From Bryobacteraceae bacterium (GTDB lineage: Bacteria > Acidobacteriota > Terriglobia > Bryobacterales > Bryobacteraceae): 64,000 nt of DNA. Below the pieces are notes generated by a model that was not told the DNA's origin, did no database searches, and was given only the letters and a program-made list of their open reading frames with translations. Where the stretch lies: assembly GCA_023384675.1 (NCBI GenBank), contig JAHDVK010000002.1:248001-312000 (forward strand), in the 5' to 3' direction. This document shows positions 13,325-48,551 of this stretch, one piece after another (within the stretch, counting starts at the first letter, position 1; every line of letters begins with the position of its first letter). The position numbers were made by a program, and so were the translations under genes.

Positions 13325-15703
13325 CTAAAACGAAAACCGAACCCCGATATTCAACTGCCGGAACATCCCCGGTTGAATTCCCTGCGGAGCCCGCGAAGCG
13401 ATATACCGGCGGTCGGTCAGGTTCTTCACTGTGAAATACGGGCGGACCTCAAAGCCTTCGCGCGCCACAACGTAATCCGCATTCACGTTCCACACCGTGT
13501 AGCCCGGAATCTGTCCGATCGTGCCGTCGTTCGAAGGCGCCACCGTCATCCGGTTATCGGCGAACTGCGACGCCACATAGGAAGCGTCCAACTGTGTGCC
13601 GAAGCCCCGCCGCTGCCGCGCGCCTACCAGGAAGGCGAACGTCTGCCGGGGCGCGTACGGCAGGCGGTTGTTCATAAACAGCGCGTCGCGCGTGAACTTC
13701 GCCGTTGTCAGGTGCATGTGCCGTACGTCGGTGTAGAACTGCCACGACCACTTGAACAGCTGGCTCCACTCCACGCGCAGGCTGCTCTCCACGCCCTGAT
13801 GCAGCGTTTGGCCCGCGTTCACCAGCGTCGTCACCGCGCCGCCCGACTGCGCGCCCGGAATAATCTGGTTGTCGAAGTCCAGCCGGAAGAAGGTGAACTC
13901 GCCGCGCACCGCCCGGTTCGCCATCAGCCGCACGCCCGCTTCATAGTTCCAGCTCAGCTCGGCATCGAGTTGCAGATCCACGCCGGCGGTGGTGACCGCA
14001 TCCTTCACCCGCGGCGGCGCAAAGCCGCGGTGCACGCCGCCGAACAACGCCAGCGCCTGGTTCACCTGATACGAAGCGCCCAGCCCCGGAATCACCTTCG
14101 TCACCGTGTTGCCCGCGCGCCGGTCCACATTTGTGGGCACGCCGCCCACGCGGGTGCGCAGAATGTGCCGCTCGAAATCATAGTGCTCCAGCCGCACACC
14201 GGGGGTCAGGATCAGCTTTGGAGTCAGAAAAATGCGGTCCTGGATAAACGCTGAGAAGGCGCGTCCGTAACGGTCCTCGTCGTCGCGCAGCGCCCCGGTG
14301 CGCGCGTCCACTGCGCTGCCCTCCACCTGCTGATCGTCCATCCGCTCGGCCACATAGCGGACCCCCGCGTCGATCGCATGGCGCATGCCGCCCCAGGATT
14401 TCTGCGTCGACACGCCCGTCTGCGCGCCATAGACCCCAAACTGCCGGTTGCGGTTCAGACTGTCATTCCGCAGGAAGATCGCTCCGCCCGGAATCGCCGG
14501 ATCGCCAAACACCCCCAGATAGTTGCGTCCCCCGTCCGCACGGTCGAAGTTGGCCCGTGCCCAGTCGCGCACTGTCGTGTAGCCAAATAGCGAACTGCTC
14601 CAGATCGTGTCTGCATTCAGCGCCACGGTATGCGAGAGCGAACCGTTGAACCGGCGCACTTTCAGGAAGTCCGTCGCCACCGGGTTCTGGTTCGGATCGG
14701 CCAGGAACATCGGCGTGGTCAGGCCCAGGTAGGTCGAGTTCGAACTCTCGTCGTAGTAGCCCGCCTTGATCGTGAAGGTGTGTGCGTCCGAGGGCTTCAT
14801 GATGAACTTCGTATTGAGATCGTCGATGTTGAAAAAGAAATCCCGCCAGCCGTCGCCGCGCTTGTGCAGGTAGTTCATCAGCCAGCCGACCTTCTGGTCT
14901 TCACTGCTGCTGCCGATCGAACCGAATCCTGAGAAGAACCCGCGCTGCCCGCCCTGGATGTCGAAATCGCCATGCAGGCGGGCCGGCGGGTCCGGCGTCA
15001 CGAAGTTGATCACGCCGCCCACCGTCTGCGGCCCGTACAATATCTGCCCGCTGCCCTTCACCACCTCGATGTGGCTCATCCGGTCGATCTGCGGCGAGTA
15101 ATACATCTCCGGCTCGCCATAGGGCGCGATCGACACCGGCAGCCCGTCCTCGAGCATCAGCACCGAGCGGCTCCGGTCCGGATTCAGACCGCGAATCCCG
15201 ATGTTCAGACGCATCCCCACCGGGCCAGACTGCTCGTTCACAACCACGCCCGGAATCCTCCGCAGCACTTCATTTGCATCCATGGCGTGTGAATCCCGCA
15301 CTTCCCGCCGGTCCAGCAAAAACACCGATCCCGGCGTCTCCAAAAGCGCTTCGGCCGATTCCCCCACCACTTCCATAGAGGTCATCGCGGCGCGGATGTT
15401 GCGGAACTGCAGCTCGATTTCAATTTCACCGGTACCCGGAACCACCGCCAGCGCCTGCACCGGCTCGAAGTGCTGCGAGATCGCTCGAATCGTGCGCCGC
15501 CCGGGCTGTGCGCCTGCGAAGACAAACTCGCCATCCTGGTTTGTGAAAGCTACTTGCAGAGAATCCAATAACTGCACCTGCGCGCCTGGCAGCGCCGCCC
15601 CGTCCGGGTCCGTTACCTTGCCGCGAATCGTCTGGGCGCTGGCCGCGGGTACGAGAAAAATCGCTGATAAAAGGACATTAGTAAGAAGGGCTGTTGGTCT
15701 CAT
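13325..15703 (-). CDS. TonB-dependent outer-membrane receptor
   Basis: A 792-residue receptor: signal peptide ending AASAQ, a carboxypeptidase-regulatory-like beta-sandwich (about residues 25-105: IRGKVTDPDGAALPGAQVQLLD), a plug domain (about 115-235, with EVLRRIPGVVVNEQSGPVGM) and a 22-strand-type barrel ending in the aromatic FSF. I chose ATG 15703 because AGAGAGG lies 7 bases upstream; a longer frame to 15793 lacks a signal at its start. The layout resembles FecA-like receptors for iron chelates or other metals, but the ligand cannot be read from sequence. A strong palindrome lies 55-75 bases upstream. Confidence 0.92.
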   Translation of the reverse strand: MRPTALLTNVLLSAIFLVPAASAQTIRGKVTDPDGAALPGAQVQLLDSLQVAFTNQDGEFVFAGAQPGRRTIRAISQHFEPVQALAVVPGTGEIEIELQFRNIRAAMTSMEVVGESAEALLETPGSVFLLDRREVRDSHAMDANEVLRRIPGVVVNEQSGPVGMRLNIGIRGLNPDRSRSVLMLEDGLPVSIAPYGEPEMYYSPQIDRMSHIEVVKGSGQILYGPQTVGGVINFVTPDPPARLHGDFDIQGGQRGFFSGFGSIGSSSEDQKVGWLMNYLHKRGDGWRDFFFNIDDLNTKFIMKPSDAHTFTIKAGYYDESSNSTYLGLTTPMFLADPNQNPVATDFLKVRRFNGSLSHTVALNADTIWSSSLFGYTTVRDWARANFDRADGGRNYLGVFGDPAIPGGAIFLRNDSLNRNRQFGVYGAQTGVSTQKSWGGMRHAIDAGVRYVAERMDDQQVEGSAVDARTGALRDDEDRYGRAFSAFIQDRIFLTPKLILTPGVRLEHYDFERHILRTRVGGVPTNVDRRAGNTVTKVIPGLGASYQVNQALALFGGVHRGFAPPRVKDAVTTAGVDLQLDAELSWNYEAGVRLMANRAVRGEFTFFRLDFDNQIIPGAQSGGAVTTLVNAGQTLHQGVESSLRVEWSQLFKWSWQFYTDVRHMHLTTAKFTRDALFMNNRLPYAPRQTFAFLVGARQRRGFGTQLDASYVASQFADNRMTVAPSNDGTIGQIPGYTVWNVNADYVVAREGFEVRPYFTVKNLTDRRYIASRAPQGIQPGMFRQLNIGVRFSF

Positions 15704-30940: not shown

Positions 30941-31360
30941 GTGTCCGTGGTTGTACTGTATCACCCCAATGGCCGGTCGCTGGAACTGGATCAGGAGTTG
31001 TGGCGGAAGGCGCTGGAGTGTGCGCGGGGGCAGGGCTGGCGTGCCACGGGCACGCTTGCGCCGCCGCAGACCTTGGGCGAGCGGGGCGTGGAGCGCTGGG
31101 ATGGGGGGTACGAGCAGCCGCTGGGACAGGAGGTAGTCCGGGAGGATGCGCGGCGGTTCGGGATGGCGCTTGGTTTGGCGGACCGGCGCGAGTTCGACCG
31201 GTTGCGGGAGTTCAGCCTGGAGGCTGGATTTATCGTCTGCGACGTGAATCCGACTCGCGCACCAGGGGCTGGTCTGGCGCAGTTGGGCCGGTATGTGGGA
31301 TGGCGGCGAGAGGCGGGGAAAGGCGCGACGGCGAAGCGCCGTCCGGGTTCCGAAGAGTAG
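30941..31360 (+). CDS. Hypothetical protein
   Basis: A 139-residue soluble protein that I do not recognise. It starts SVVVLYHPNGRSLELDQELWRKALECARGQGW and includes FGMALGLADRREFDRLREF and FIVCDVNPTRAPGAGLAQL; the tail is basic and low complexity. GTG 30941 has AGGAAGGG just upstream; GTG 30947 and a start at 30914 are possible. It sits between the OmpA-family gene (divergent) and the TonB-like gene, 37 bases from the latter, so may share its transcript. Confidence 0.55.
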   Translation: MSVVVLYHPNGRSLELDQELWRKALECARGQGWRATGTLAPPQTLGERGVERWDGGYEQPLGQEVVREDARRFGMALGLADRREFDRLREFSLEAGFIVCDVNPTRAPGAGLAQLGRYVGWRREAGKGATAKRRPGSEE

Positions 31361-31396: not shown

Positions 31397-32746
31397 TTGC
31401 CTCGCATACAAAGCCAGTCAGGGCTTCCTCGCGAAGCGCTGCTTTTTGATGCTTTGGACCGAAGCTCGCATCGTCCGCGGCCTCTTCCTGTGGCGGGCTC
31501 GTTGGCGCTGCATGTCCTTGGGATCGTGCTGGCAGTGGCGACACCCGCAAGCCGGTCTGATGAGTTCATTCGTGGTGAGGACTACCGGATTCTACCCGCG
31601 CCGGAGCGAAAGCTGATCTGGCACAAGCTGGATAGCCGTTTGCCCGACCTTTCTGTCGGGAGCAAGACGGCGCTGAACCCTCCGCGTCCGAAGCGATTGT
31701 CGAAAAAGATGTCGCTGCAGGCGGCGATGGTGGAGGCGCCGCCTGCGGACCAGTTGATCTGGCAGCCGGCAACGCCGCAGATGACGAAGGAATCCGTGGA
31801 CTTGCCCAACCTGGCGGCCTTTCAGCCGCCTCCACCGCCCGAGGCAAAGCCGGAACCCGAGCCGCCCAAGCCGGAGCCGCCCGCGCCCGAGCCGCCGCCG
31901 GTGGTGCTGGCGAAAAAGCCGCCGCCCAGGAAGTTCCGGCCGCCTCCGGAGACACCACGCCCCAAGATGACCCGGATCGAGGTGACGGAGCCGCCCCCGG
32001 GCGCGGCGGTCAGCGAACCGGCGGCGCTGGGACAGATCTCGGCGGTGGTGGCGGGGATTCAGCCGTCGATGAAGGACCTGCCGGAGATTCCGGAGGCGAA
32101 CCGCCCGGCTTCGGTGTCGGTGGGGCCCGATGCGAGCCGGCGCGGGGGTGACGGCGGGGTGCCGGAGGTTTCGGCGGTGGAGGGATTGGAACTGATCACA
32201 CGCGGCGGGGGCGCGGCGGCGCCGGCGGCGCGCTCGACGTTCTCGGCGGAGACGGTGATGTTCTCGAGGGAATCGATCGAACAGAGGCGCGGCGCGGTGG
32301 CCGTGCCGGTAAGGCTGGCGATGCTGCCGCCCGCGGCGAAGGAGTTTTTCGGGGGGAGGTCAGTTTACCTGGTGTTTCTGGAGCGGATGAACGAAAAACA
32401 CTACAGCGGGGAGACGCTGATGTGGTTTGCGGCGAAGGAGCAGAGCGCGACCGGCGGGCGGGCGATGCACGCGCCGGTGCCATTCCGGCAAAAGGACCCG
32501 TTCTCGCCGCGTTCGAAGATTCAATTTCCGTTAAAGGGGCTGATCCGTCTGGCGGTGGTGGTGGGAGTGGATGGATTTGTTAGCGGGGTCCGGGTGCTGG
32601 GAGGGCCTGACGACCGGGTGAACCAGTCGATGGCCGCGGCGGTGGCGGGCTGGACGTTTCTGCCGGCGTTGAGAGGCGGGGAAAAGATCGCGGTGGATGT
32701 ACTGCTGGATATTCCGCTGGCGCTCGCCGCGGACAGTGGTAATTAG
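31397..32746 (+). CDS. TonB-like energy-transducer protein
   Basis: A 449-residue protein with a short cytoplasmic N-terminus, one transmembrane helix at about residues 33-50 (GSLALHVLGIVLAVA), a Pro/Lys/Glu-rich periplasmic spacer (about 145-190: PEAKPEPEPPKPEPPAPEPP) and a C-terminal TonB-type domain (LIRLAVVVGVDGFVSGVRVL ... AAAVAGWTFLPALRGGE). The start is a TTG with no clear Shine-Dalgarno, and a TATACT box six bases upstream would make it leaderless, so the true start is uncertain. No exbB/exbD is in the window. Confidence 0.8.
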   Translation: MPRIQSQSGLPREALLFDALDRSSHRPRPLPVAGSLALHVLGIVLAVATPASRSDEFIRGEDYRILPAPERKLIWHKLDSRLPDLSVGSKTALNPPRPKRLSKKMSLQAAMVEAPPADQLIWQPATPQMTKESVDLPNLAAFQPPPPPEAKPEPEPPKPEPPAPEPPPVVLAKKPPPRKFRPPPETPRPKMTRIEVTEPPPGAAVSEPAALGQISAVVAGIQPSMKDLPEIPEANRPASVSVGPDASRRGGDGGVPEVSAVEGLELITRGGGAAAPAARSTFSAETVMFSRESIEQRRGAVAVPVRLAMLPPAAKEFFGGRSVYLVFLERMNEKHYSGETLMWFAAKEQSATGGRAMHAPVPFRQKDPFSPRSKIQFPLKGLIRLAVVVGVDGFVSGVRVLGGPDDRVNQSMAAAVAGWTFLPALRGGEKIAVDVLLDIPLALAADSGN

Positions 32747-32777
32747 GCCGCGCAGTGCGTTGTCGAGCGGCTCCCGG

Positions 32778-32933
32778 CTACTCGCTCTTGTTGTTCCCCA
32801 GCGCAGGGGCCTGGTGGCGCCGGGAAGCGACATAATCCGACCAGAGGTCCGGGAGGAGTTCGAAGACGACGAACCAGAGAAGGACGAGCGCCAGGAGGCT
32901 GAAGGTAAGCGCCGTAGCGCCGGGTTCGCTCAC
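32778..32933 (-). CDS. Tiny single-helix membrane protein
   Basis: A 51-residue protein with one strong helix (LTFSLLALVLLWFVVFELL) and a polar C-terminus. The start is a GTG that overlaps the TGA of the upstream gene (GTGA), which supports a real co-translated gene. It ends the operon that begins with the TPR lipoprotein. Function unknown. Confidence 0.65.
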   Translation of the reverse strand: MSEPGATALTFSLLALVLLWFVVFELLPDLWSDYVASRRHQAPALGNNKSE

Positions 32934-33241
32934 TGGTTCTCCCTGGCGGCGAATTGCGCTTCGAGTTCGGCGAGGCGGGCGCTGGAACGCTGCGTCTCCG
33001 CGCGACGGAGTGCGCGCTGGGCGAGGCCATACGCGACGCCGGCCAGTCCAAACACGATGGCGGACATGCGTGTGACCTTTGCCTGGCTCATCCAGACGAT
33101 CCAGACCTCGAAAAACGACTCCTTGCCGAGAGCGGTGGAGGCGATGAGGCGGACCTGATAAAGCGCCGCGAGCAGGAAGATCCAAGGCAGCACTTTGCGG
33201 ATAAGCAGGTGGAAGAGTTGTCTGGGGGAGGGGGTGGTCAT
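32930..33241 (-). CDS. Small two-helix membrane protein with C-terminal coiled coil
   Basis: A 103-residue protein with hydrophobic stretches at about 14-30 (VLPWIFLLAALYQV) and 60-75 (MSAIVFGLAGVAYGLA) and an Ala/Glu/Arg-rich coiled-coil tail. The ATG at 33239-33241 overlaps the TGA of the TonB-like gene. Function unknown; membership of the TPR/TonB-like operon suggests an envelope role. Confidence 0.75.
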   Translation of the reverse strand: MTTPSPRQLFHLLIRKVLPWIFLLAALYQVRLIASTALGKESFFEVWIVWMSQAKVTRMSAIVFGLAGVAYGLAQRALRRAETQRSSARLAELEAQFAARENQ

Positions 33242-34239
33242 CACCGGGGAACTCCATAGCGCAGCCGGAGCAGGGCTCGGACTCTCGGTTCGGGGTAGCC
33301 CGCGGGCAGCGGTTGGAAGGCGGGGGTCAAGGCGACGGCTTCGCGGGCCTGCCGGTCCAGTGCGGGGTTGCCGGAGGACTGGACAACTTCGACCGCTCGA
33401 ATGCGGCCGCCCTTTTCGAACGAGAGCGCCAGGACGGTTTCGCCGGAAGCGCCCAGAGCGAGTTTCTCCGGAAATGCCTCGAAACAGGCGCGCCGGAAGC
33501 GGGTCAGAAAAAGCCGGAGGTATTCCTCGAGGATGCGGGCGGCATGGGCCTGGACAAGCACCTCGATGCTGGAGCCGATCCGGGCCGGGGACTCGGGGAG
33601 TCTGAGCCCTTCGCCGGTTCCGCCGCCGAGCCGGGATGAATCCCCGACTACCAGGCGATCGTGCGGCCGATCCCCCGGCCGCCGCTCGCGGCTATTGCTG
33701 GGCGGCACCAAGTCGAAGGGGATCGAAGGTCCACTGCCGCTCTCATTCAGGAGTCCGCCAGAGGGGAGCGCGCCGCCGCCGCCGAAGGCGGGCAGCGGCA
33801 GGTTGGAGGGGCTCTGCTGGGAAGCGTGCTGCTTTGGGCCAGCGCTGGAACGTTCCGTCTCCGCGGGATCGAGGGGGCGCAAATTCAGTCTGCGCAGGTC
33901 GGGCGCGATTAAGGGCCGGTTCGGGACGAGGGCGGAGAGCGGGATTTCACCCTGTTTCCCGCGAATCCCGTCCCGGTCGCCCAACTCGAAGAGGGGCGAG
34001 GTCAGCATCACCGCCTGTCCAAACTGATAGCCAGGCCTGGAACGCTGGCTGAAGAGGGTGGCGTCCAGCCCATGGCGGAGAAAGAAGGCGAGAAAGAGGA
34101 GGTGCAGGAGGCTGGAGAGAGCCTGAGTCGAGTACCAGAGCCTACCGGGCCGTTGCTGGAGCTGTTCGAGCGGAACGATCCGGGGCAGCGCAGGCTCAGC
34201 GGGCGGTGGCAATTCCGGAATGAGCTCAATCGGGGGCAT
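33241..34239 (-). CDS. TonB-family protein
   Basis: A 332-residue protein: a Pro-rich cytoplasmic start (PPIELIPELPPPAEP), one transmembrane segment at about 40-56 (LSSLLHLLFLAFFLRHG), a long low-complexity periplasmic region, and a TonB C-terminal domain (GETVLALSFEKGGRIRAVEVVQSSGNPALDRQAREAV). The ending PRVRALLRLRYGVPR is a final beta strand typical of the fold. It follows the TPR lipoprotein by 3 bases and overlaps the next small membrane gene. Confidence 0.82.
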   Translation of the reverse strand: MPPIELIPELPPPAEPALPRIVPLEQLQQRPGRLWYSTQALSSLLHLLFLAFFLRHGLDATLFSQRSRPGYQFGQAVMLTSPLFELGDRDGIRGKQGEIPLSALVPNRPLIAPDLRRLNLRPLDPAETERSSAGPKQHASQQSPSNLPLPAFGGGGALPSGGLLNESGSGPSIPFDLVPPSNSRERRPGDRPHDRLVVGDSSRLGGGTGEGLRLPESPARIGSSIEVLVQAHAARILEEYLRLFLTRFRRACFEAFPEKLALGASGETVLALSFEKGGRIRAVEVVQSSGNPALDRQAREAVALTPAFQPLPAGYPEPRVRALLRLRYGVPR

Positions 34240-34242
34240 GAT

Positions 34243-36549
34243 CTAGCTGAGTTGGGCCAGAAGTGCGCGGATTTTTTTCTCCATTTCCGGCGGGGGCTGC
34301 CTCTCCAGGGCGGCCTGGAGTTCGGCGCGGGCGCTGTTGCGGTCGCCCTGCTGGAGCAGACCGGCGCCGAGATGATACCGGAAGGCGGCTTCATCAGGGT
34401 ATTTTCTGACGAGCCCGTTGAAGATCTGGAGGGCTGAGGATACGTCGTTCTTCTTCAGAAAGACCCATCCGACGGTATCGGCGATGTATCTTTGCTGCGG
34501 CACCTGCTGGAGCGCGGTTTGGGCAAGCTTTAGAGCCTCATCCAGATCGCCGCCGTGCTCCGCCAGCAGGTAGGCGAGGTTGTTCATGGCGATGGGCGTA
34601 TTGGGATTCAGGGCGAGAGCCTGGCGGTAGGCCGCGATCGCCTCCTTGGGCTGGCCGGAGACCTCAAAGGCATAGGCGAGGCGGAGCATCGCCTCCAGGC
34701 TGTCCGGGGTGATCTGAGAAGCGCGACGGAAGGCGAGGATGGCTCGCGGCAGATCGCCATTCAGCTGATGGGCCATGCCGAGTTGGAGGTAGAGATAGTC
34801 CCAATTTTGGTCGCGCTCGGCAAGCCGGATGAATTCATTTACGGCCAGCGGGTAGTCTTTCACGCGCATGGCAGTGCGGGCGAGCAGGAGCCGGATGCGC
34901 GGGTCGGCGGGCAGGCGGGTGAGTTCGTCCTGGGCGAGCTTCAGGGCCTGGGTGTTGAATTCCTGGGCCAGGTGGACTTCGACGATTCCCGTGAGGGCGC
35001 GCACGTCGCCCGATTCTTTGTAGATATTACGCAGCCGTGCCTCCGCGGCGGAGTAGCTGCGTTCCGCCAAGTCGAGAAAGGCCATCTGGAGGTGAGCTTC
35101 CCGGAATTGGGGATAATCTTTCAACAGTTGCAGGAGGATTTTGCGAGCCTCGGTGAGATTGCCGAGGCCCGTCAGGGCGGCGCTGCGGTAGTAGCGGCCC
35201 TGGGGGTGTGAGGGGTTAATGCTCAGGATCTCGCTGGAGTACTGTTGGACTTCGCGGTAGCGGTCCGTGTCGAGAAGCATCTGGGCGAGGGCGAGCCGTG
35301 GTTCAAGGAAGTTCCGCTGCATCTGGCTGGCGCGGAGGAAGGAGGTGCGCGCCGGTTCGGATTGGCGGTTGGCGAGCTGGGCAAGACCGAGGTTGTATTG
35401 CAGGAGCGGGTTGTTGGGGCTTTCCTTGACGAGGGCTTCGAACTGCTTGAGCGAATCCGCGGCGTCCTTTTCCATATTGAGCAGGGCTCTGCGGGCGCGG
35501 CTTTCGGGGTCATTGGGGGATCCCTCGAGGATGCCGGCGTAGGCCTTTTCTGCTTCCTCCCGTTTGCCCTCGATCAGGAGCAGGTGAGCGAGGCGTTTCT
35601 GGTACTCGGTGGTGAGTTCCGCGCTGGCGGCCGACCGGGAGAGTCCGTCCTCATAGTAGCGGCGGGCTTCGGGGATCTTGCCGATGCCGCGGTAGAAGTC
35701 GCCGGCCGCCAGGTGGCCGCCAGGGTAGGCGGCGGCGTCCTCACTGAGGGGCGCGAGTGCCTGCTGCATCTCGTTCGTCTGACGTTGCCGGAAGTGGTGA
35801 AATGCGAGCGCGGTTCTGGCTGACGGCTGAGTGGGCAGGGCTTCGATCCGCTTTCGGAGAATTGCCTCGGCGCCGGTTGTGCGGCCGGCCTGCATATAAA
35901 GCGAGTAGAGCGCGTCGTAGGCGGGATGGAATTCGGGGTTCAGTGCAATCGCCTTTTGCAGCAATTCTTCCGCTTTGGCGGTCTCGTTTGCGCGCTGGTA
36001 CACCGTTCCCATGCCCGCGAGCGCTTCCGGCGATTCGGGGTTCAAGGCGAGGGCTTTCTCGAAGTAGGTTGCGGCCTCCGGGTTCTGGTTTTCGATGAGG
36101 GCGACCTGGCCGCGCAGCATGAGACCTGGATAGGAGTTGGGATTCTGTTGCAGCAGGCTTTGCGCGATGCCGCGGGCCATTTGAAGCGGGTACTCCTCGA
36201 CGGCGCCCTGATAGACATAGGCGAAGAGGTAGATCTCGGCGAGGCGTTTCTTGACGTCCTCATTCTCGGGCATCAGCGTCATGGCTTCACGCAACGCGAC
36301 GAGGGCGCGGGATATGTCGCCGCCCCGCTCGAGGTCAGTCAGCGCGAGCTGGTAGTAGGCTTCGCCGAGGCGCGGGTTCTTTTGGATTGCTTTGCGGAAA
36401 GCGAGGGCGGCGTTATCGTAGTCCTTGGCTTCAAGGCGCCTTTTCCCTTCGGCGACATAGCGGTCGGCGGAAGCTTGCTTGAACGAACTGCAGGAGGAAA
36501 GCAGCAGAGCCGTCGCGAGAATCGAACACAAGTTTACGTGGAGAGTCAT
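34243..36549 (-). CDS. Large TPR-repeat lipoprotein (PrsT-like)
   Basis: A 768-residue lipoprotein: lipobox LLLSSC gives a lipidated Cys near residue 20, and about 17-20 tetratricopeptide repeats fill the rest (for example DYDNAALAFRKAIQKNPRLGEAYYQLALTDL). This length and build match the TPR lipoproteins that accompany exosortase/PEP-CTERM exopolysaccharide loci, where they are thought to help polymer assembly or export. The locus and exosortase lie 11 kb apart on the same strand. First gene of the operon 36549-32778. Confidence 0.85.
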   Translation of the reverse strand: MTLHVNLCSILATALLLSSCSSFKQASADRYVAEGKRRLEAKDYDNAALAFRKAIQKNPRLGEAYYQLALTDLERGGDISRALVALREAMTLMPENEDVKKRLAEIYLFAYVYQGAVEEYPLQMARGIAQSLLQQNPNSYPGLMLRGQVALIENQNPEAATYFEKALALNPESPEALAGMGTVYQRANETAKAEELLQKAIALNPEFHPAYDALYSLYMQAGRTTGAEAILRKRIEALPTQPSARTALAFHHFRQRQTNEMQQALAPLSEDAAAYPGGHLAAGDFYRGIGKIPEARRYYEDGLSRSAASAELTTEYQKRLAHLLLIEGKREEAEKAYAGILEGSPNDPESRARRALLNMEKDAADSLKQFEALVKESPNNPLLQYNLGLAQLANRQSEPARTSFLRASQMQRNFLEPRLALAQMLLDTDRYREVQQYSSEILSINPSHPQGRYYRSAALTGLGNLTEARKILLQLLKDYPQFREAHLQMAFLDLAERSYSAAEARLRNIYKESGDVRALTGIVEVHLAQEFNTQALKLAQDELTRLPADPRIRLLLARTAMRVKDYPLAVNEFIRLAERDQNWDYLYLQLGMAHQLNGDLPRAILAFRRASQITPDSLEAMLRLAYAFEVSGQPKEAIAAYRQALALNPNTPIAMNNLAYLLAEHGGDLDEALKLAQTALQQVPQQRYIADTVGWVFLKKNDVSSALQIFNGLVRKYPDEAAFRYHLGAGLLQQGDRNSARAELQAALERQPPPEMEKKIRALLAQLS

Positions 36550-36573: not shown

Positions 36574-36602
36574 AAGGTGAACGGCGGAGGCCCGTTCACC
36601 TT
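36574..36602 (-). terminator. Rho-independent terminator of the PEP-CTERM gene
   Basis: Perfect 10-base arms AAGGTGAACG and CGTTCACCTT around a 9-base loop; read on the minus strand the stem is followed by TTTTCTCTTTC. It lies about 45 bases downstream of the PEP-CTERM gene stop and just ahead of the TPR gene, so it separates the two units. Confidence 0.75.
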
Positions 36603-36646: not shown

Positions 36647-37399
36647 CTAGACGGCTTGCGAGCGGCGGCGGCGCCGGTTCAAGAGAAAGAGCGCCCCACC
36701 GATGGTGCCCATGAGCAGATACGCGCCGGGTTCGGGAACGCCAGTGGCCAGTCCCTTGGACCAGGCGACTTGCAGGCCGGTCGGGTTCGGTGCATCCGCA
36801 TCGTTAAAAACATCAAAACGGATCGTGTACGTGCCGGGATTCAGGCCGGTGAGAGTTCCGAAACTAAAAAAGCCCTGATAGTTGGGCTGGAACGCCAGGC
36901 CGTAGCCTTGCGAGGTGCGGGCTGGCGCCGGCACGGTCGCGGTGTACACCTCACTATTCGGGCCGATAAGATAGACCGTGTTGTTGAGGATTTCGTTGTC
37001 GGCCCAGAGGCGGCCGTCGAGTTCCAATATCCACTTGGGGGCGCCAGAGAGAGTGAACGTGGTGGAGACTTGAGCTGTGGTCTGTCCGGGGCCCAGGTTA
37101 TTCGCCTGCGGGGAGATCCACTTGTAGTCATTCGGCGTGTTTGTTCCCAGGCTGTTCGGGTTCCAAGGAGGGATGGGCAGGGAACTGGTGACAACCGCGG
37201 GGCTGCTGACGCTGCCGACTGTCCAAGTGTAGTTGGAATCCTGTTGCCCGCCCGGCGCCGTGCCCGGGGAGAAACTGGAATTAAAGCCCGTGTTCCAAAG
37301 CTGCCGGTTGTTGACATCCAGCAAATCGATGGTGATGGCGAGCATGGGAGATCCACTCAGCACGATTGCACCGAGCAGAGTCAAGACTAATTTGCTCAT
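36647..37399 (-). CDS. PEP-CTERM sorting-signal protein
   Basis: A 250-residue secreted protein with an N-terminal signal (VLTLLGAIVLSGSPMLA) and a C-terminal exosortase sorting tag: VPEP at about 221-224, a hydrophobic helix (YLLMGTIGGALFLL) and a basic tail (NRRRRR). The middle is beta-rich (ITIDLLDVNNRQLWN ... STTFTLSGAPKWILEL) and contains no known enzyme motif. Expected to be cut and anchored by the exosortase encoded at 47715-48551. It has its own promoter candidate and terminator, so is a single-gene unit. Confidence 0.9.
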   Translation of the reverse strand: MSKLVLTLLGAIVLSGSPMLAITIDLLDVNNRQLWNTGFNSSFSPGTAPGGQQDSNYTWTVGSVSSPAVVTSSLPIPPWNPNSLGTNTPNDYKWISPQANNLGPGQTTAQVSTTFTLSGAPKWILELDGRLWADNEILNNTVYLIGPNSEVYTATVPAPARTSQGYGLAFQPNYQGFFSFGTLTGLNPGTYTIRFDVFNDADAPNPTGLQVAWSKGLATGVPEPGAYLLMGTIGGALFLLNRRRRRSQAV

Positions 37400-47052: not shown

Positions 47053-47718
47053 CTAGAATGCAGGAAAATGATCAGAGAGCGCGACATAAACACGGCCGGC
47101 CAGATCCTCCGCGGCCTGTTCGGCGGCCCCAGAGTTTCCGCCTTCAAATGGTACGATGACTCGCACCAGGGCGGTATCGCTTCTTTGGTGGCGGATGGCG
47201 TCGGCGATGAGATGCAGTTTGGCCATGTACTCGTTTCCGACGGCCCGGCTGGCCGTCTGGTACCAATAGATCACGATGCTGCGCATGCGGCCTTTGGATA
47301 TCACGTAGTGATTGACGTGGATCGGCGCCCGCCCGGGAACTGGCACCGCGCGAATGCCCTGGCTGGCCGGAGTCCAGCCATTGCCGGGCAGGCAGTTTCG
47401 CGGCGTGTGGGGGGCGTGGCCCGTGCGCTGCGTCTTGAAGTAGGCGACAAACAGGCTGGCGGCCGCGCCGGTCTGGGTGTTTGCGTAGATGCGGTAGAGG
47501 TAATCGTCGGGGTGCAGGATCTCGGCGGTCGCGGAGTCGAGGCGATCCTGCGAGGCGAGGGTCCAGCCGCCTAACTGCGATTGGATGAATTGAAGCGGGA
47601 GCGTGTTGGGTTCGCGCTCGTTCTGGGCAAAGGCATAGAAGCACACCGCCTGCGCAAGCAGGATCCCAGTCGCGAGGGCGACGCTCTTCGAGCGCAGAAA
47701 GAGGCCAAACTCGTTCAT
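47053..47718 (-). CDS. epsI: EpsI family exosortase-associated protein
   Basis: A 221-residue protein with one N-terminal helix (SVALATGILLAQAVCFYAFA) and an EpsI domain: LPLQFIQSQLGGWT, DDYLYRIY, SLFVAYFKTQRTGHAPHTPRN-CLPGNGW and YVISKGRMRSIVIYWYQ are its characteristic strands. EpsI is often fused to exosortase or adjacent to it; here it is separate and its ATG overlaps the exosortase stop by 4 bases. Exact role in exosortase systems is not settled. Confidence 0.92.
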   Translation of the reverse strand: MNEFGLFLRSKSVALATGILLAQAVCFYAFAQNEREPNTLPLQFIQSQLGGWTLASQDRLDSATAEILHPDDYLYRIYANTQTGAAASLFVAYFKTQRTGHAPHTPRNCLPGNGWTPASQGIRAVPVPGRAPIHVNHYVISKGRMRSIVIYWYQTASRAVGNEYMAKLHLIADAIRHQRSDTALVRVIVPFEGGNSGAAEQAAEDLAGRVYVALSDHFPAF

Positions 47719-48551
47719 GAGGAGGCCTCCCGCGAGCCGAAGCGGCGCAGCACTCTCTCGGTAAGCGCGAGCATGAGGATGGCGATCACGAACACAGCCC
47801 AACCAGACATGCCGTGAAAAAAGCCTTCCGCCAGTCGCGGGTCATACTCGCCGAGAATCCCCGTCAGAACAATCCGGCTGGAGTTAGCAAGGACCGCGAT
47901 CGGGAAGGCGGCGGCCAGCAAAGCCCATCGCATCCAGACCTGCGGGTGAAACAAGTAGGCGTACGCGAGGCTGAAGAAAGCGAGCGACAGCAAGGCGCGG
48001 ACGCCGCTGCAGGCTTCGATCACGGAGATCTGCCAGCCGGCCATTTCGATGATGTTGCCTTCTCGCAGCACTATGTGCCCCAGTAGCTCGAGGCCCTGTT
48101 CGGCGATTCGGCTCGCGAGAATCTGCAGGGGAAAGGTGATCTGCTTGTATAACAGCCCGGGCAACGGGAGCATGAAACACAGAAGGGTTAAAGGGAAGGC
48201 CAGCCGCCGCAGAAGTGCGCCTCCGCCAAGGTACCAGACCAGGCCGCCGATCGTAACCATTAGAGCGACACGTTGGGTGAATATCTCAGCGGCAAGCGCA
48301 CCAAGGCAAGCCAAGATTCCGCCGACTATCAGGAAAGCCAGACCCCATCCACTCCGCTTAATGTCTACGCTGAATAATTCACTCCTGCGCTCCCAGACGA
48401 TGTAGCCCACAATCAGCGGCACGAAGAACCCATGGCTCATGTCGTCATTGCTGACCCATTGCCAGGTAATATTGCCAATAACTGGAAAATAGCAAATGGC
48501 GATAAGCAGAGAAAACCAGACAAGATATTTTTGGAGAGGCGTCAGCTTCAT
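47715..48551 (-). CDS. Exosortase (PEP-CTERM protein-sorting transpeptidase)
   Basis: A 278-residue membrane protease/transpeptidase with about eight helices. The catalytic set is visible: Cys181 in EACSGVRALLSL, Arg226 in ANSSRIVLTGIL, and His246 in FFHGMSGW. NDDMSHGFFVPLI near residue 36 is the usual N-terminal motif. It should cleave after PEP in the two PEP-CTERM proteins of this window and join them to an unknown acceptor. It is the first gene of the exosortase-epsI pair. Confidence 0.95.
   Translation of the reverse strand: MKLTPLQKYLVWFSLLIAICYFPVIGNITWQWVSNDDMSHGFFVPLIVGYIVWERRSELFSVDIKRSGWGLAFLIVGGILACLGALAAEIFTQRVALMVTIGGLVWYLGGGALLRRLAFPLTLLCFMLPLPGLLYKQITFPLQILASRIAEQGLELLGHIVLREGNIIEMAGWQISVIEACSGVRALLSLAFFSLAYAYLFHPQVWMRWALLAAAFPIAVLANSSRIVLTGILGEYDPRLAEGFFHGMSGWAVFVIAILMLALTERVLRRFGSREASS

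What the first reader, a model, noticed from the sequence alone, without database searches (positions are those of the whole stretch)
31397..36549. Two TonB-like proteins, a PrsT-like TPR lipoprotein and two tiny membrane proteins with no ExbB/ExbD
One operon encodes TPR lipoprotein, TonB-like protein, a 103-aa two-helix coiled-coil protein and a 51-aa single-helix protein, all overlapping or 3 bases apart; a second TonB-like gene converges on it with only 31 bases between. TonB proteins need a motor; here small membrane proteins take the place of ExbB/ExbD. The set could be a trans-envelope machine coupling exopolysaccharide export to the inner membrane.
Basis: inference. Interest (0 to 1): 0.5.

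Follow-up and report, generated by a model that had tools for sequence, protein, structure and literature searches.

The report
Two orphan TonB modules, no motor
Two ordinary energy-transmitting proteins of the TonB type sit beside a sugar-coat gene cluster in an acidobacterium and most likely borrow a motor encoded elsewhere in the genome; the two tiny membrane proteins next to them are not a replacement motor but look like distant cousins of a membrane pair known from a candidate antiviral defence system.

Summary
The anatomy is real: coordinates, 3-31 base gaps, two TonB-like proteins and both small genes check out. Both TonBs keep the SxxxH motor-contact motif (6 of 6 TonB1 and 7 of 7 TonB2 orthologs), and the genome carries two ExbB/ExbD-type motors elsewhere against 17 TonB_C matches. 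Motorless TonB loci are therefore normal here, and no substitute motor is needed. The 103-aa and 51-aa proteins have no detectable kinship with ExbB or ExbD. By profile they are distant relatives of the '2TM' and '1TM' proteins that PADLOC lists beside TIR genes. The 51-aa protein matches only the membrane helix of a 132-140-aa relative.

The five genes are two modules brought together. A TPR-lipoprotein/TonB1 operon is conserved in all five genomes of another Bryobacteraceae genus, mostly away from this exosortase locus. TonB2 facing the small pair lies at a separate site in those examined. Near exosortases, TonB genes are rare: 0 of 40 surveyed loci have one with the motif. A link to exopolysaccharide export is possible but not shown. 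The least expected point is the recurrent pairing of a 2TM/1TM pair with a TonB (7 of 7 close-clade loci, about three lineages).

The parts
34243..36549 (-). TPR lipoprotein, 768 aa, PrsT-like; first gene of the TPR-TonB1 operon
   Evidence: TPR families E down to 9e-54; TIGR02917 PrsT 273.5 bits, below its 312.2 cut-off; lipobox LLSSC read from the sequence; 61-62% identical orthologs directly before TonB1 in genus g44
33241..34239 (-). TonB1, 332 aa: TM helix with SxxxH (SSLLH), linker, TonB C-terminal domain
   Evidence: TonB_C E=3.2e-7 and tonB_Cterm E=2.8e-8, both above cut-off; SxxxH in 6 of 6 orthologs; profile matches solved HasB/TonB/TolA domains
32930..33241 (-). 103-aa protein, two TM helices (one found by hydropathy, the second read by eye) and a basic coiled-coil tail; close relative of the '2TM' member of 2TM/1TM membrane pairs
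   Evidence: 51-58% identity to four relatives; profile comparison with distant 2TM proteins E=3.8e-10; no match to ExbB; hydropathy
32778..32933 (-). 51-aa single-helix protein, apparently a truncated form of the 132-140-aa '1TM' partner
   Evidence: 49% identical to the N-terminal part of the 132-aa relative; C-terminal helical domain missing; no remnant visible in a three-frame reading downstream
31397..32746 (+). TonB2, 449 aa (or 418 aa from 31490): TM helix with SxxxH (SLALH), long Pro-rich linker, TonB C-terminal domain
   Evidence: AF2 C-terminal domain: the 10 best Foldseek matches are TonB or FusB C-terminal domains; TonB_C in 12 of 13 relatives; SxxxH in 7 of 7 orthologs
30941..31360 (+). 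139-148-aa protein of unknown function directly before TonB2
   Evidence: homologs directly before TonB2 in L096 and L097 and in L132
36574..36602 (-). terminator-like hairpin between the PEP-CTERM gene and the TPR gene
   Evidence: 11-bp stem and T-rich tail; fold z-score -3.7
36647..37399 (-). PEP-CTERM protein, last gene of the exosortase-linked cluster
   Evidence: TIGR02595 24.3 bits, above its 16-bit cut-off
47715..48551 (-). exosortase (8TM EpsH family), with EpsI at 47053-47718
   Evidence: TIGR02602 182 bits over cut-off; EpsI_fam 125 bits over cut-off

Best explanation
The region holds two separate envelope modules that happen to lie side by side next to an exosortase/polysaccharide locus in this genome. 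Module 1 is a two-gene operon: an outer-membrane or periplasmic TPR lipoprotein and TonB1. TonB1 sits in the inner membrane by its SxxxH helix, docks on an ExbB/ExbD- or TolQ/TolR-type motor encoded elsewhere, spans the periplasm with its linker, and pulls through its C-terminal domain on an outer-membrane partner. The TPR lipoprotein is the likeliest adaptor between TonB1 and that partner. Module 2 is TonB2, another motor-in-trans transducer, with a convergent pair of small membrane proteins. That pair belongs to the 2TM/1TM family and is not a motor; its 1TM member has lost its cytoplasmic domain here. Shown by computation: the TonB domains, the motif, the separate conservation of the modules, motors in trans, no kinship of the small proteins with ExbB/ExbD, kinship with 2TM/1TM pairs. 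Inferred: docking on the trans motors, the adaptor role of the TPR protein, the cargo or receptor.
For: TonB domains. SxxxH in 6/6 TonB1 and 7/7 TonB2 orthologs, and in only 2 of 100 proteins with an N-terminal hydrophobic segment in the window plus 19 control regions, those two being TonB1 and TonB2. Ser16 and His20 of E. coli TonB contact ExbB in cryo-EM (PMC12215075, passages), and TonB and TolA can use each other's motor (PMC12204202, passages). Motors in trans: TolQ-TolR-TolA-TolB-Pal-like set at G000:C57 and TonB-ExbB-ExbD-ExbD-TPR at G000:C29; 17 TonB_C matches in the genome. Two modules: the TPR-TonB1 operon in 5 of 5 genomes of g44 with gaps of 3-8 bases, TonB2 plus pair elsewhere in the four of them examined. 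TPR precedent: ttpD2, a TPR gene directly after tonB2, is essential for TonB2-dependent iron transport in Vibrio vulnificus (PMC6957404, abstract start and passages). Small pair: against a motor, for 2TM/1TM kinship.
Against: Docking on the trans motors was not tested; the Leu and Ser of the full SHLS motif are not kept. One motor-linked TonB of this genome (C29) lacks the His, so the motif is not a perfect predictor. The window's 1TM protein is truncated, so its 2TM/1TM kinship rests on 43 N-terminal residues of its relatives (E=2.7e-5, probability 74.5). Proximity to the exosortase locus in this genome, in G099 and in G032 leaves room for a real link to exopolysaccharide or PEP-CTERM proteins that this reading treats as secondary.
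Confidence: 0.62

Rival explanations
1. One five-gene trans-envelope machine couples exopolysaccharide export or PEP-CTERM sorting to the inner membrane, the small proteins standing in for ExbB/ExbD.
For: All five genes lie together beside an exosortase locus. G032 has a TonB2-like gene, TPR lipoprotein, PEP-CTERM gene, the small pair and an exosortase within 8 kb. [quoted passage not shown]
Against: Modules lie at separate sites in four g44 genomes; G044 and G126 have a single exosortase each, with no TonB or TPR gene near it, and still keep both modules. 0 of 40 surveyed exosortase loci have an SxxxH TonB. Small proteins in 9 of 150 family genomes against exosortase in 139 of 150. No ExbB/ExbD kinship.
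Confidence: 0.08
2. The TPR lipoprotein and TonB1 do serve the exosortase/polysaccharide locus, with the motor in trans; the small pair is irrelevant to it.
For: Same gene order, exosortase cluster - PEP-CTERM - TPR - TonB1, in G099 of another genus. PrsT-like TPR genes near the exosortase in 12 of 40 surveyed loci against 1 of 19 controls.
Against: Three of the g44 genomes keep TPR-TonB1 with no homolog of the window's exosortase in the 39-40 kb examined around it (one side stops at the contig end in G044); the TPR genes near other exosortases have no TonB.
Confidence: 0.2
3. The small 2TM/1TM pair is the membrane part of an antiviral defence system that lost or never had its TIR gene; its place next to TonB2 is accidental.
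For: Profile kinship with 2TM/1TM pairs; six distant 1TM proteins match PADLOC 1TM-TIR, E=1e-7 to 1e-3; TIR genes in one such locus, L139.
Against: TonB2-like gene within 4 kb in 7 of 7 close-clade loci (window), about three lineages; a motif search found no TIR in the window; the window proteins themselves match no PADLOC model.
Confidence: 0.1

Closest known systems
TonB/TolA force transducers with ExbB/ExbD or TolQ/TolR
   Same: Three-part build: SxxxH membrane helix, low-complexity linker, TonB C-terminal domain.
   Different: No motor gene next to them; two TonBs within 3 kb; TonB2 has a very long linker and an extra alpha/beta stretch (residues about 300-365) before the TonB domain.
Vibrio TonB2 system with the TPR protein TtpD2 (PMC6957404, abstract start and passages)
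   Same: A TPR-protein gene directly next to tonB in one operon.
   Different: The Vibrio system includes TtpC2 (abstract start); that its operon also holds exbB2 and exbD2 is recalled. TtpD2 is 425 aa and lies after tonB2, here the TPR gene is 768 aa, a lipoprotein, and lies before TonB1. Sequence kinship not tested.
PrsT (TIGR02917) of PEP-CTERM/exosortase systems
   Same: TPR lipoprotein beside a PEP-CTERM gene and an exosortase locus, with a terminator-like hairpin between the PEP-CTERM gene and the TPR gene as reported for pepA-prsT in Aquincola (PMC9850573, passages).
   Different: 273.5 bits, under the 312.2 cut-off; 768 aa against a 899-position model; coupled to a TonB gene.
PADLOC candidate defence proteins '2TM-TIR' and '1TM-TIR'
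   Same: Adjacent genes for a 2TM protein and a 1TM protein; profile kinship through distant relatives.
   Different: No TIR found by motif search, no direct PADLOC match of the window proteins, 1TM partner truncated; next to a TonB instead.

Membership tests
TonB/TolA force transducer (TonB1) | TonB C-terminal domain | tested here: met
   Pfam TonB_C 31.1 bits over cut-off 24.6; tonB_Cterm 34 over 27.1
TonB/TolA force transducer (TonB2) | TonB C-terminal domain | tested here: met
   Pfam under cut-off for the window protein, but AF2 domain matches TonB CTDs, Foldseek probability 1.00, and 12 of 13 relatives match TonB_C at E<=0.1
TonB/TolA force transducer (both) | Ser-x3-His in the N-terminal membrane helix | tested here: met
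   6 of 6 TonB1 and 7 of 7 TonB2 orthologs; background 0 of 98 other proteins
TonB/TolA force transducer (both) | Leu and Ser of the full SHLS motif | tested here: not met
   position H+7 varies and H+11 is Gly in TonB1 and Pro in TonB2 orthologs; the spacing of the two residues is recalled from E. coli TonB
TonB/TolA force transducer (both) | energised by ExbB/ExbD or TolQ/TolR | not testable with these tools
   motors present in the genome; interaction needs an experiment
ExbB/ExbD (103-aa and 51-aa proteins) | sequence kinship with MotA_ExbB or ExbD | tested here: not met
   no Pfam hit; hhalign E=0.18 and 0.56
PrsT TIGR02917 | equivalog score cut-off 312.2 bits | tested here: not met
   273.5 bits
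PrsT TIGR02917 | TPR lipoprotein in a genome with exosortase, PEP-CTERM and PrsK | tested here: met
   lipobox read; PrsK over cut-off at G000:C4
2TM/1TM membrane pair (PADLOC 2TM-TIR, 1TM-TIR) | profile kinship of both members | tested here: met
   2TM E=3.8e-10; 1TM E=2.7e-5 over 43 residues, probability 74.5
2TM/1TM membrane pair (PADLOC 2TM-TIR, 1TM-TIR) | direct PADLOC match of the window proteins | tested here: not met
   no match
2TM/1TM membrane pair (PADLOC 2TM-TIR, 1TM-TIR) | TIR gene nearby | tested here: not met
   none in the window by a motif search over ORFs of 100 aa or more; not tested with a TIR profile
Vibrio TonB2/TtpD2-type system | ExbB, ExbD and TtpC in the same operon (recalled, apart from TtpC) | tested here: not met
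   no ExbB/ExbD-type gene in the operon

The most novel reading that the evidence does not exclude
A 2TM/1TM membrane pair, known from a candidate TIR defence system, has been recruited as an accessory of a TonB: it sits in the inner membrane next to TonB2, regulates or guards it (for example against phages that exploit TonB-dependent receptors), and works without a TIR effector.
Probability: 0.15. Interest if true: 0.6.

Novelty: new variant of a known kind. Interest (0 to 1): 0.32.

Why it matters
It makes a new motor an unnecessary explanation for the missing ExbB/ExbD: this genome has many more TonB genes than motors. What remains of interest is a conserved TPR-lipoprotein/TonB operon of unknown cargo, found in all five genomes held of one genus, and the recurrent placement of a 2TM/1TM pair beside a TonB. 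If that pair turned out to act on TonB, it would link an envelope transducer to a protein family that PADLOC lists as candidate antiviral defence.

Tried and rejected
Rejected: the small proteins as a miniature ExbB/ExbD (among the aligned columns where at least 6 of 8 members of the 2TM family carry a charge, I see none inside the two hydrophobic stretches as I read them). Rejected: the small proteins as a fixed part of exosortase systems (9 of 150 against 139 of 150 family genomes; 5 of 396 phylum genomes). Rejected: the TonB2 Pfam miss as evidence that it is no TonB. Rejected as the main reading: the five genes as one operon-machine.

Led nowhere: the search for related loci with TonB1 alone (no confirmed relative); plasmid searches with the L112 pair and with TonB1 (no match); structure search with the 1TM relative (AF2 mean pLDDT 89, all helical; no PDB match at E<=0.001); literature searches for TonB with PEP-CTERM, exosortase and TPR (0 papers), SXXXH, exosortase+TonB+exopolysaccharide (6 papers, listing only; no title or abstract start spoke of such a link), exosortase in acidobacteria, acidobacterial energy transducer TonB, polysaccharide export with ExbBD, 2TM-1TM-TIR. 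The library is open-licence PMC only, so absence there is weak. No complex could be modelled: the predictor takes single chains.

Limits: the 40 surveyed exosortase loci (L149-L188) were picked by hand from the top and the lower end of the list, not at random, and 19 of them were shorter than 20 kb, mostly because contigs end. The other TonB-bearing exosortase-type loci (L041/L042, L100, L109, L110) came from TonB or 2TM searches and are biased towards TonB; L100 holds cluster genes but no exosortase gene. In the 19 control regions no TonB was found and one had TPR hits. Genes in relatives were called with a home-made codon-score script and starts are approximate.
Full report
What is there. 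The window lies in a 5.73-Mb genome assembly. Its relatives are Bryobacteraceae, Acidobacteriota: three of the four named loci found with the 103-aa family carry that name, the fourth is labelled Arcobacter although the genome search places its genome in the window's own family. On the minus strand a TPR lipoprotein (34243-36549), a TonB-like protein (33241-34239), a 103-aa protein (32930-33241) and a 51-aa protein (32778-32933) follow each other with a 3-base gap, a 1-base overlap and a 4-base overlap. A second TonB-like gene (31397-32746, +) ends 31 bases from the last of them. Upstream lies a PEP-CTERM gene, separated by a terminator-like hairpin, and then a polysaccharide/exosortase cluster with an exosortase at 47715-48551 and EpsI at 47053-47718.

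Both TonB-like proteins are TonBs. TonB1 passes the Pfam and NCBIfam cut-offs. TonB2 does not, but 12 of 13 relatives match TonB_C at E<=0.1, the two families align by profile in their last domain (E=6.7e-5), and the predicted C-terminal domain of TonB2 has solved TonB or FusB C-terminal domains as its ten best structural matches (E 0.004-0.04, Foldseek probability 0.99-1.00; the whole model has mean pLDDT 50, its C-terminal domain about 75-90). Both have a single N-terminal membrane helix with Ser-x3-His. In 100 proteins with an N-terminal hydrophobic segment, taken from the window and 19 control regions, only TonB1 and TonB2 have this motif. It is kept in 6 of 6 TonB1 and 7 of 7 TonB2 orthologs and in all 13 members of the wider TonB2 alignment. 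In the wider TonB1 alignment, paralogs included, I read it in 11 of 14 rows. In E. coli these two residues contact ExbB (PMC12215075, passages read). The remaining Leu and Ser of the published SHLS motif are not kept.

No substitute motor is needed. The genome has four MotA/ExbB-family genes. Judged by their neighbours and by recalled family features, two are flagellar-type MotA (C41, C53), one belongs to a TolQ-TolR-TolA-TolB-Pal-like set (C57) and one to a TonB-ExbB-ExbD-ExbD-TPR set (C29). Against these stand 17 TonB_C matches, two of them in one reading frame. A TonB gene without a motor next to it is thus the common state in this genome. TonB and TolA are reported to use each other's motor through the same motif (PMC12204202, passages read).

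The small proteins are not ExbB/ExbD. They match no Pfam or NCBIfam family, and profile comparison with this genome's own motor proteins gives nothing (E=0.18 and 0.56). They do belong to something: a distant set of 2TM and 1TM gene pairs in other Acidobacteriota. The 2TM profiles align over 85 columns (E=3.8e-10, probability 96.7). The 1TM profiles align over the first 43 residues (E=2.7e-5, probability 74.5). All six distant 1TM proteins match PADLOC's 1TM-TIR model with E between 1e-7 and 1e-3, one distant 2TM protein matches 2TM-TIR weakly (E=0.003), and the locus of that pair (L139) carries TIR genes. The window proteins and their close relatives match no PADLOC model, and a motif search found no TIR protein in the window. 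The 51-aa protein corresponds to the membrane helix of 132-140-aa proteins in the close relatives; the helical domain after it is missing.

The five genes are two modules. In genus g44 all 5 of 5 genomes have TonB1, and the TPR gene lies directly before it with gaps of 3-8 bases, 61-62% identical to the window's. TonB2 and the 2TM/1TM pair, convergent as in the window, lie at another place in the four of these genomes that I examined; a further gene (DUF3592) stands between them there but not in L132 or the window. Of those four, only G099 has an exosortase locus next to TPR-TonB1, in the same order as the window. G044 and G126 have one exosortase each, without TonB or TPR near it, yet keep both modules. 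For the fifth genome (G543) the contig ends just upstream. In the window's own genus, TonB1 is absent from the other three genomes held. The 2TM protein occurs in 9 of 150 family genomes and 5 of 396 phylum genomes, the window's own included. It lies within 4 kb of a TonB2-like gene in 7 of 7 close-clade loci (window, L095-L098, L110, L132) and of none in the 7 distant ones. The close-clade loci are about three independent lineages, since four are of one genus and L132 may be close to it.

Link with the exosortase. In 40 exosortase loci picked from the family, none carries an SxxxH TonB; one (L177) has a TonB2-like fragment at the edge; 12 carry a PrsT-like TPR gene. In 19 control regions there was no TonB and one region with TPR hits. 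TonB-bearing exosortase-type loci do exist (window, G099, G032, G112; G088 with cluster genes but no exosortase in the short contig), but these were found through TonB or 2TM searches. In G032 a TonB2-like gene, a TPR lipoprotein, a PEP-CTERM gene, the small pair and the exosortase lie within 8 kb (PEP-CTERM there read from the sequence). PrsT is known to be needed for floc formation in Aquincola (PMC9850573, passages read). A role of TPR-TonB1 in polysaccharide or PEP-CTERM biology is therefore open, but module conservation without this exosortase locus argues for a wider role.

Most likely working. TonB1 docks by its SxxxH helix on a motor made elsewhere, spans the periplasm and pulls on an outer-membrane partner with the TPR lipoprotein as adaptor. 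The precedent is TtpD2, a TPR protein whose gene follows tonB2 in Vibrio vulnificus and which is essential for TonB2-dependent iron transport (PMC6957404, title, abstract start and passages read). The motif, domains, operon and motors are shown; docking, adaptor role and cargo are inferred. TonB2 works the same way on a partner of its own; the 2TM/1TM pair opposite to it may be an accessory of TonB2 or an independent membrane pair.

Verdict. The kinship of the small pair with 2TM/1TM candidate defence proteins and its recurrent place beside a TonB is the one point that would surprise a specialist.

Noticed in passing
window 36574-36602 (-): Strong hairpin with T-rich tail between the PEP-CTERM gene and the TPR gene, like the stem-loop reported between pepA and prsT in Aquincola.
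   Followed up: partly
window 30941-31360 (+); L096 11951-12397; L097 12937-13377; L132 13529-13966: A small conserved protein of unknown family directly before TonB2; a NusG-like gene lies next to it in L096 and L132 but not in the window.
   Followed up: partly
L095-L097, next to the 2TM gene: One or two Flp-pilin-like genes (named by recall from sequence) lie beside the 2TM/1TM pair in three of four g44 genomes.
   Followed up: no
L139 2265-2882, 2885-5095, 13214-14221: TIR-type genes in the same locus as a 2TM/1TM pair in another acidobacterial family; fits PADLOC's 2TM/1TM/TIR grouping.
   Followed up: partly
L149-L153, L159-L163, L179: A class of exosortase loci in the family carries a 750-810-aa PrsT-like TPR gene, sometimes directly after exosortase and EpsI; the commoner class does not.
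   Followed up: partly
L133 (DYJN01000011.1): A public MAG contig titled Arcobacter sp. matches in contig length and position a genome that the genome search places in the window's family; probably mislabelled.
   Followed up: no
G000, 17 places: 17 TonB_C matches against two ExbB/TolQ-type motors in one genome.
   Followed up: partly
window 13325-15703 (-): A TonB-dependent receptor (plug, barrel and carboxypeptidase-regulatory domain) lies about 16 kb from TonB2; no receptor was recognised next to TonB1 or TonB2.
   Followed up: no
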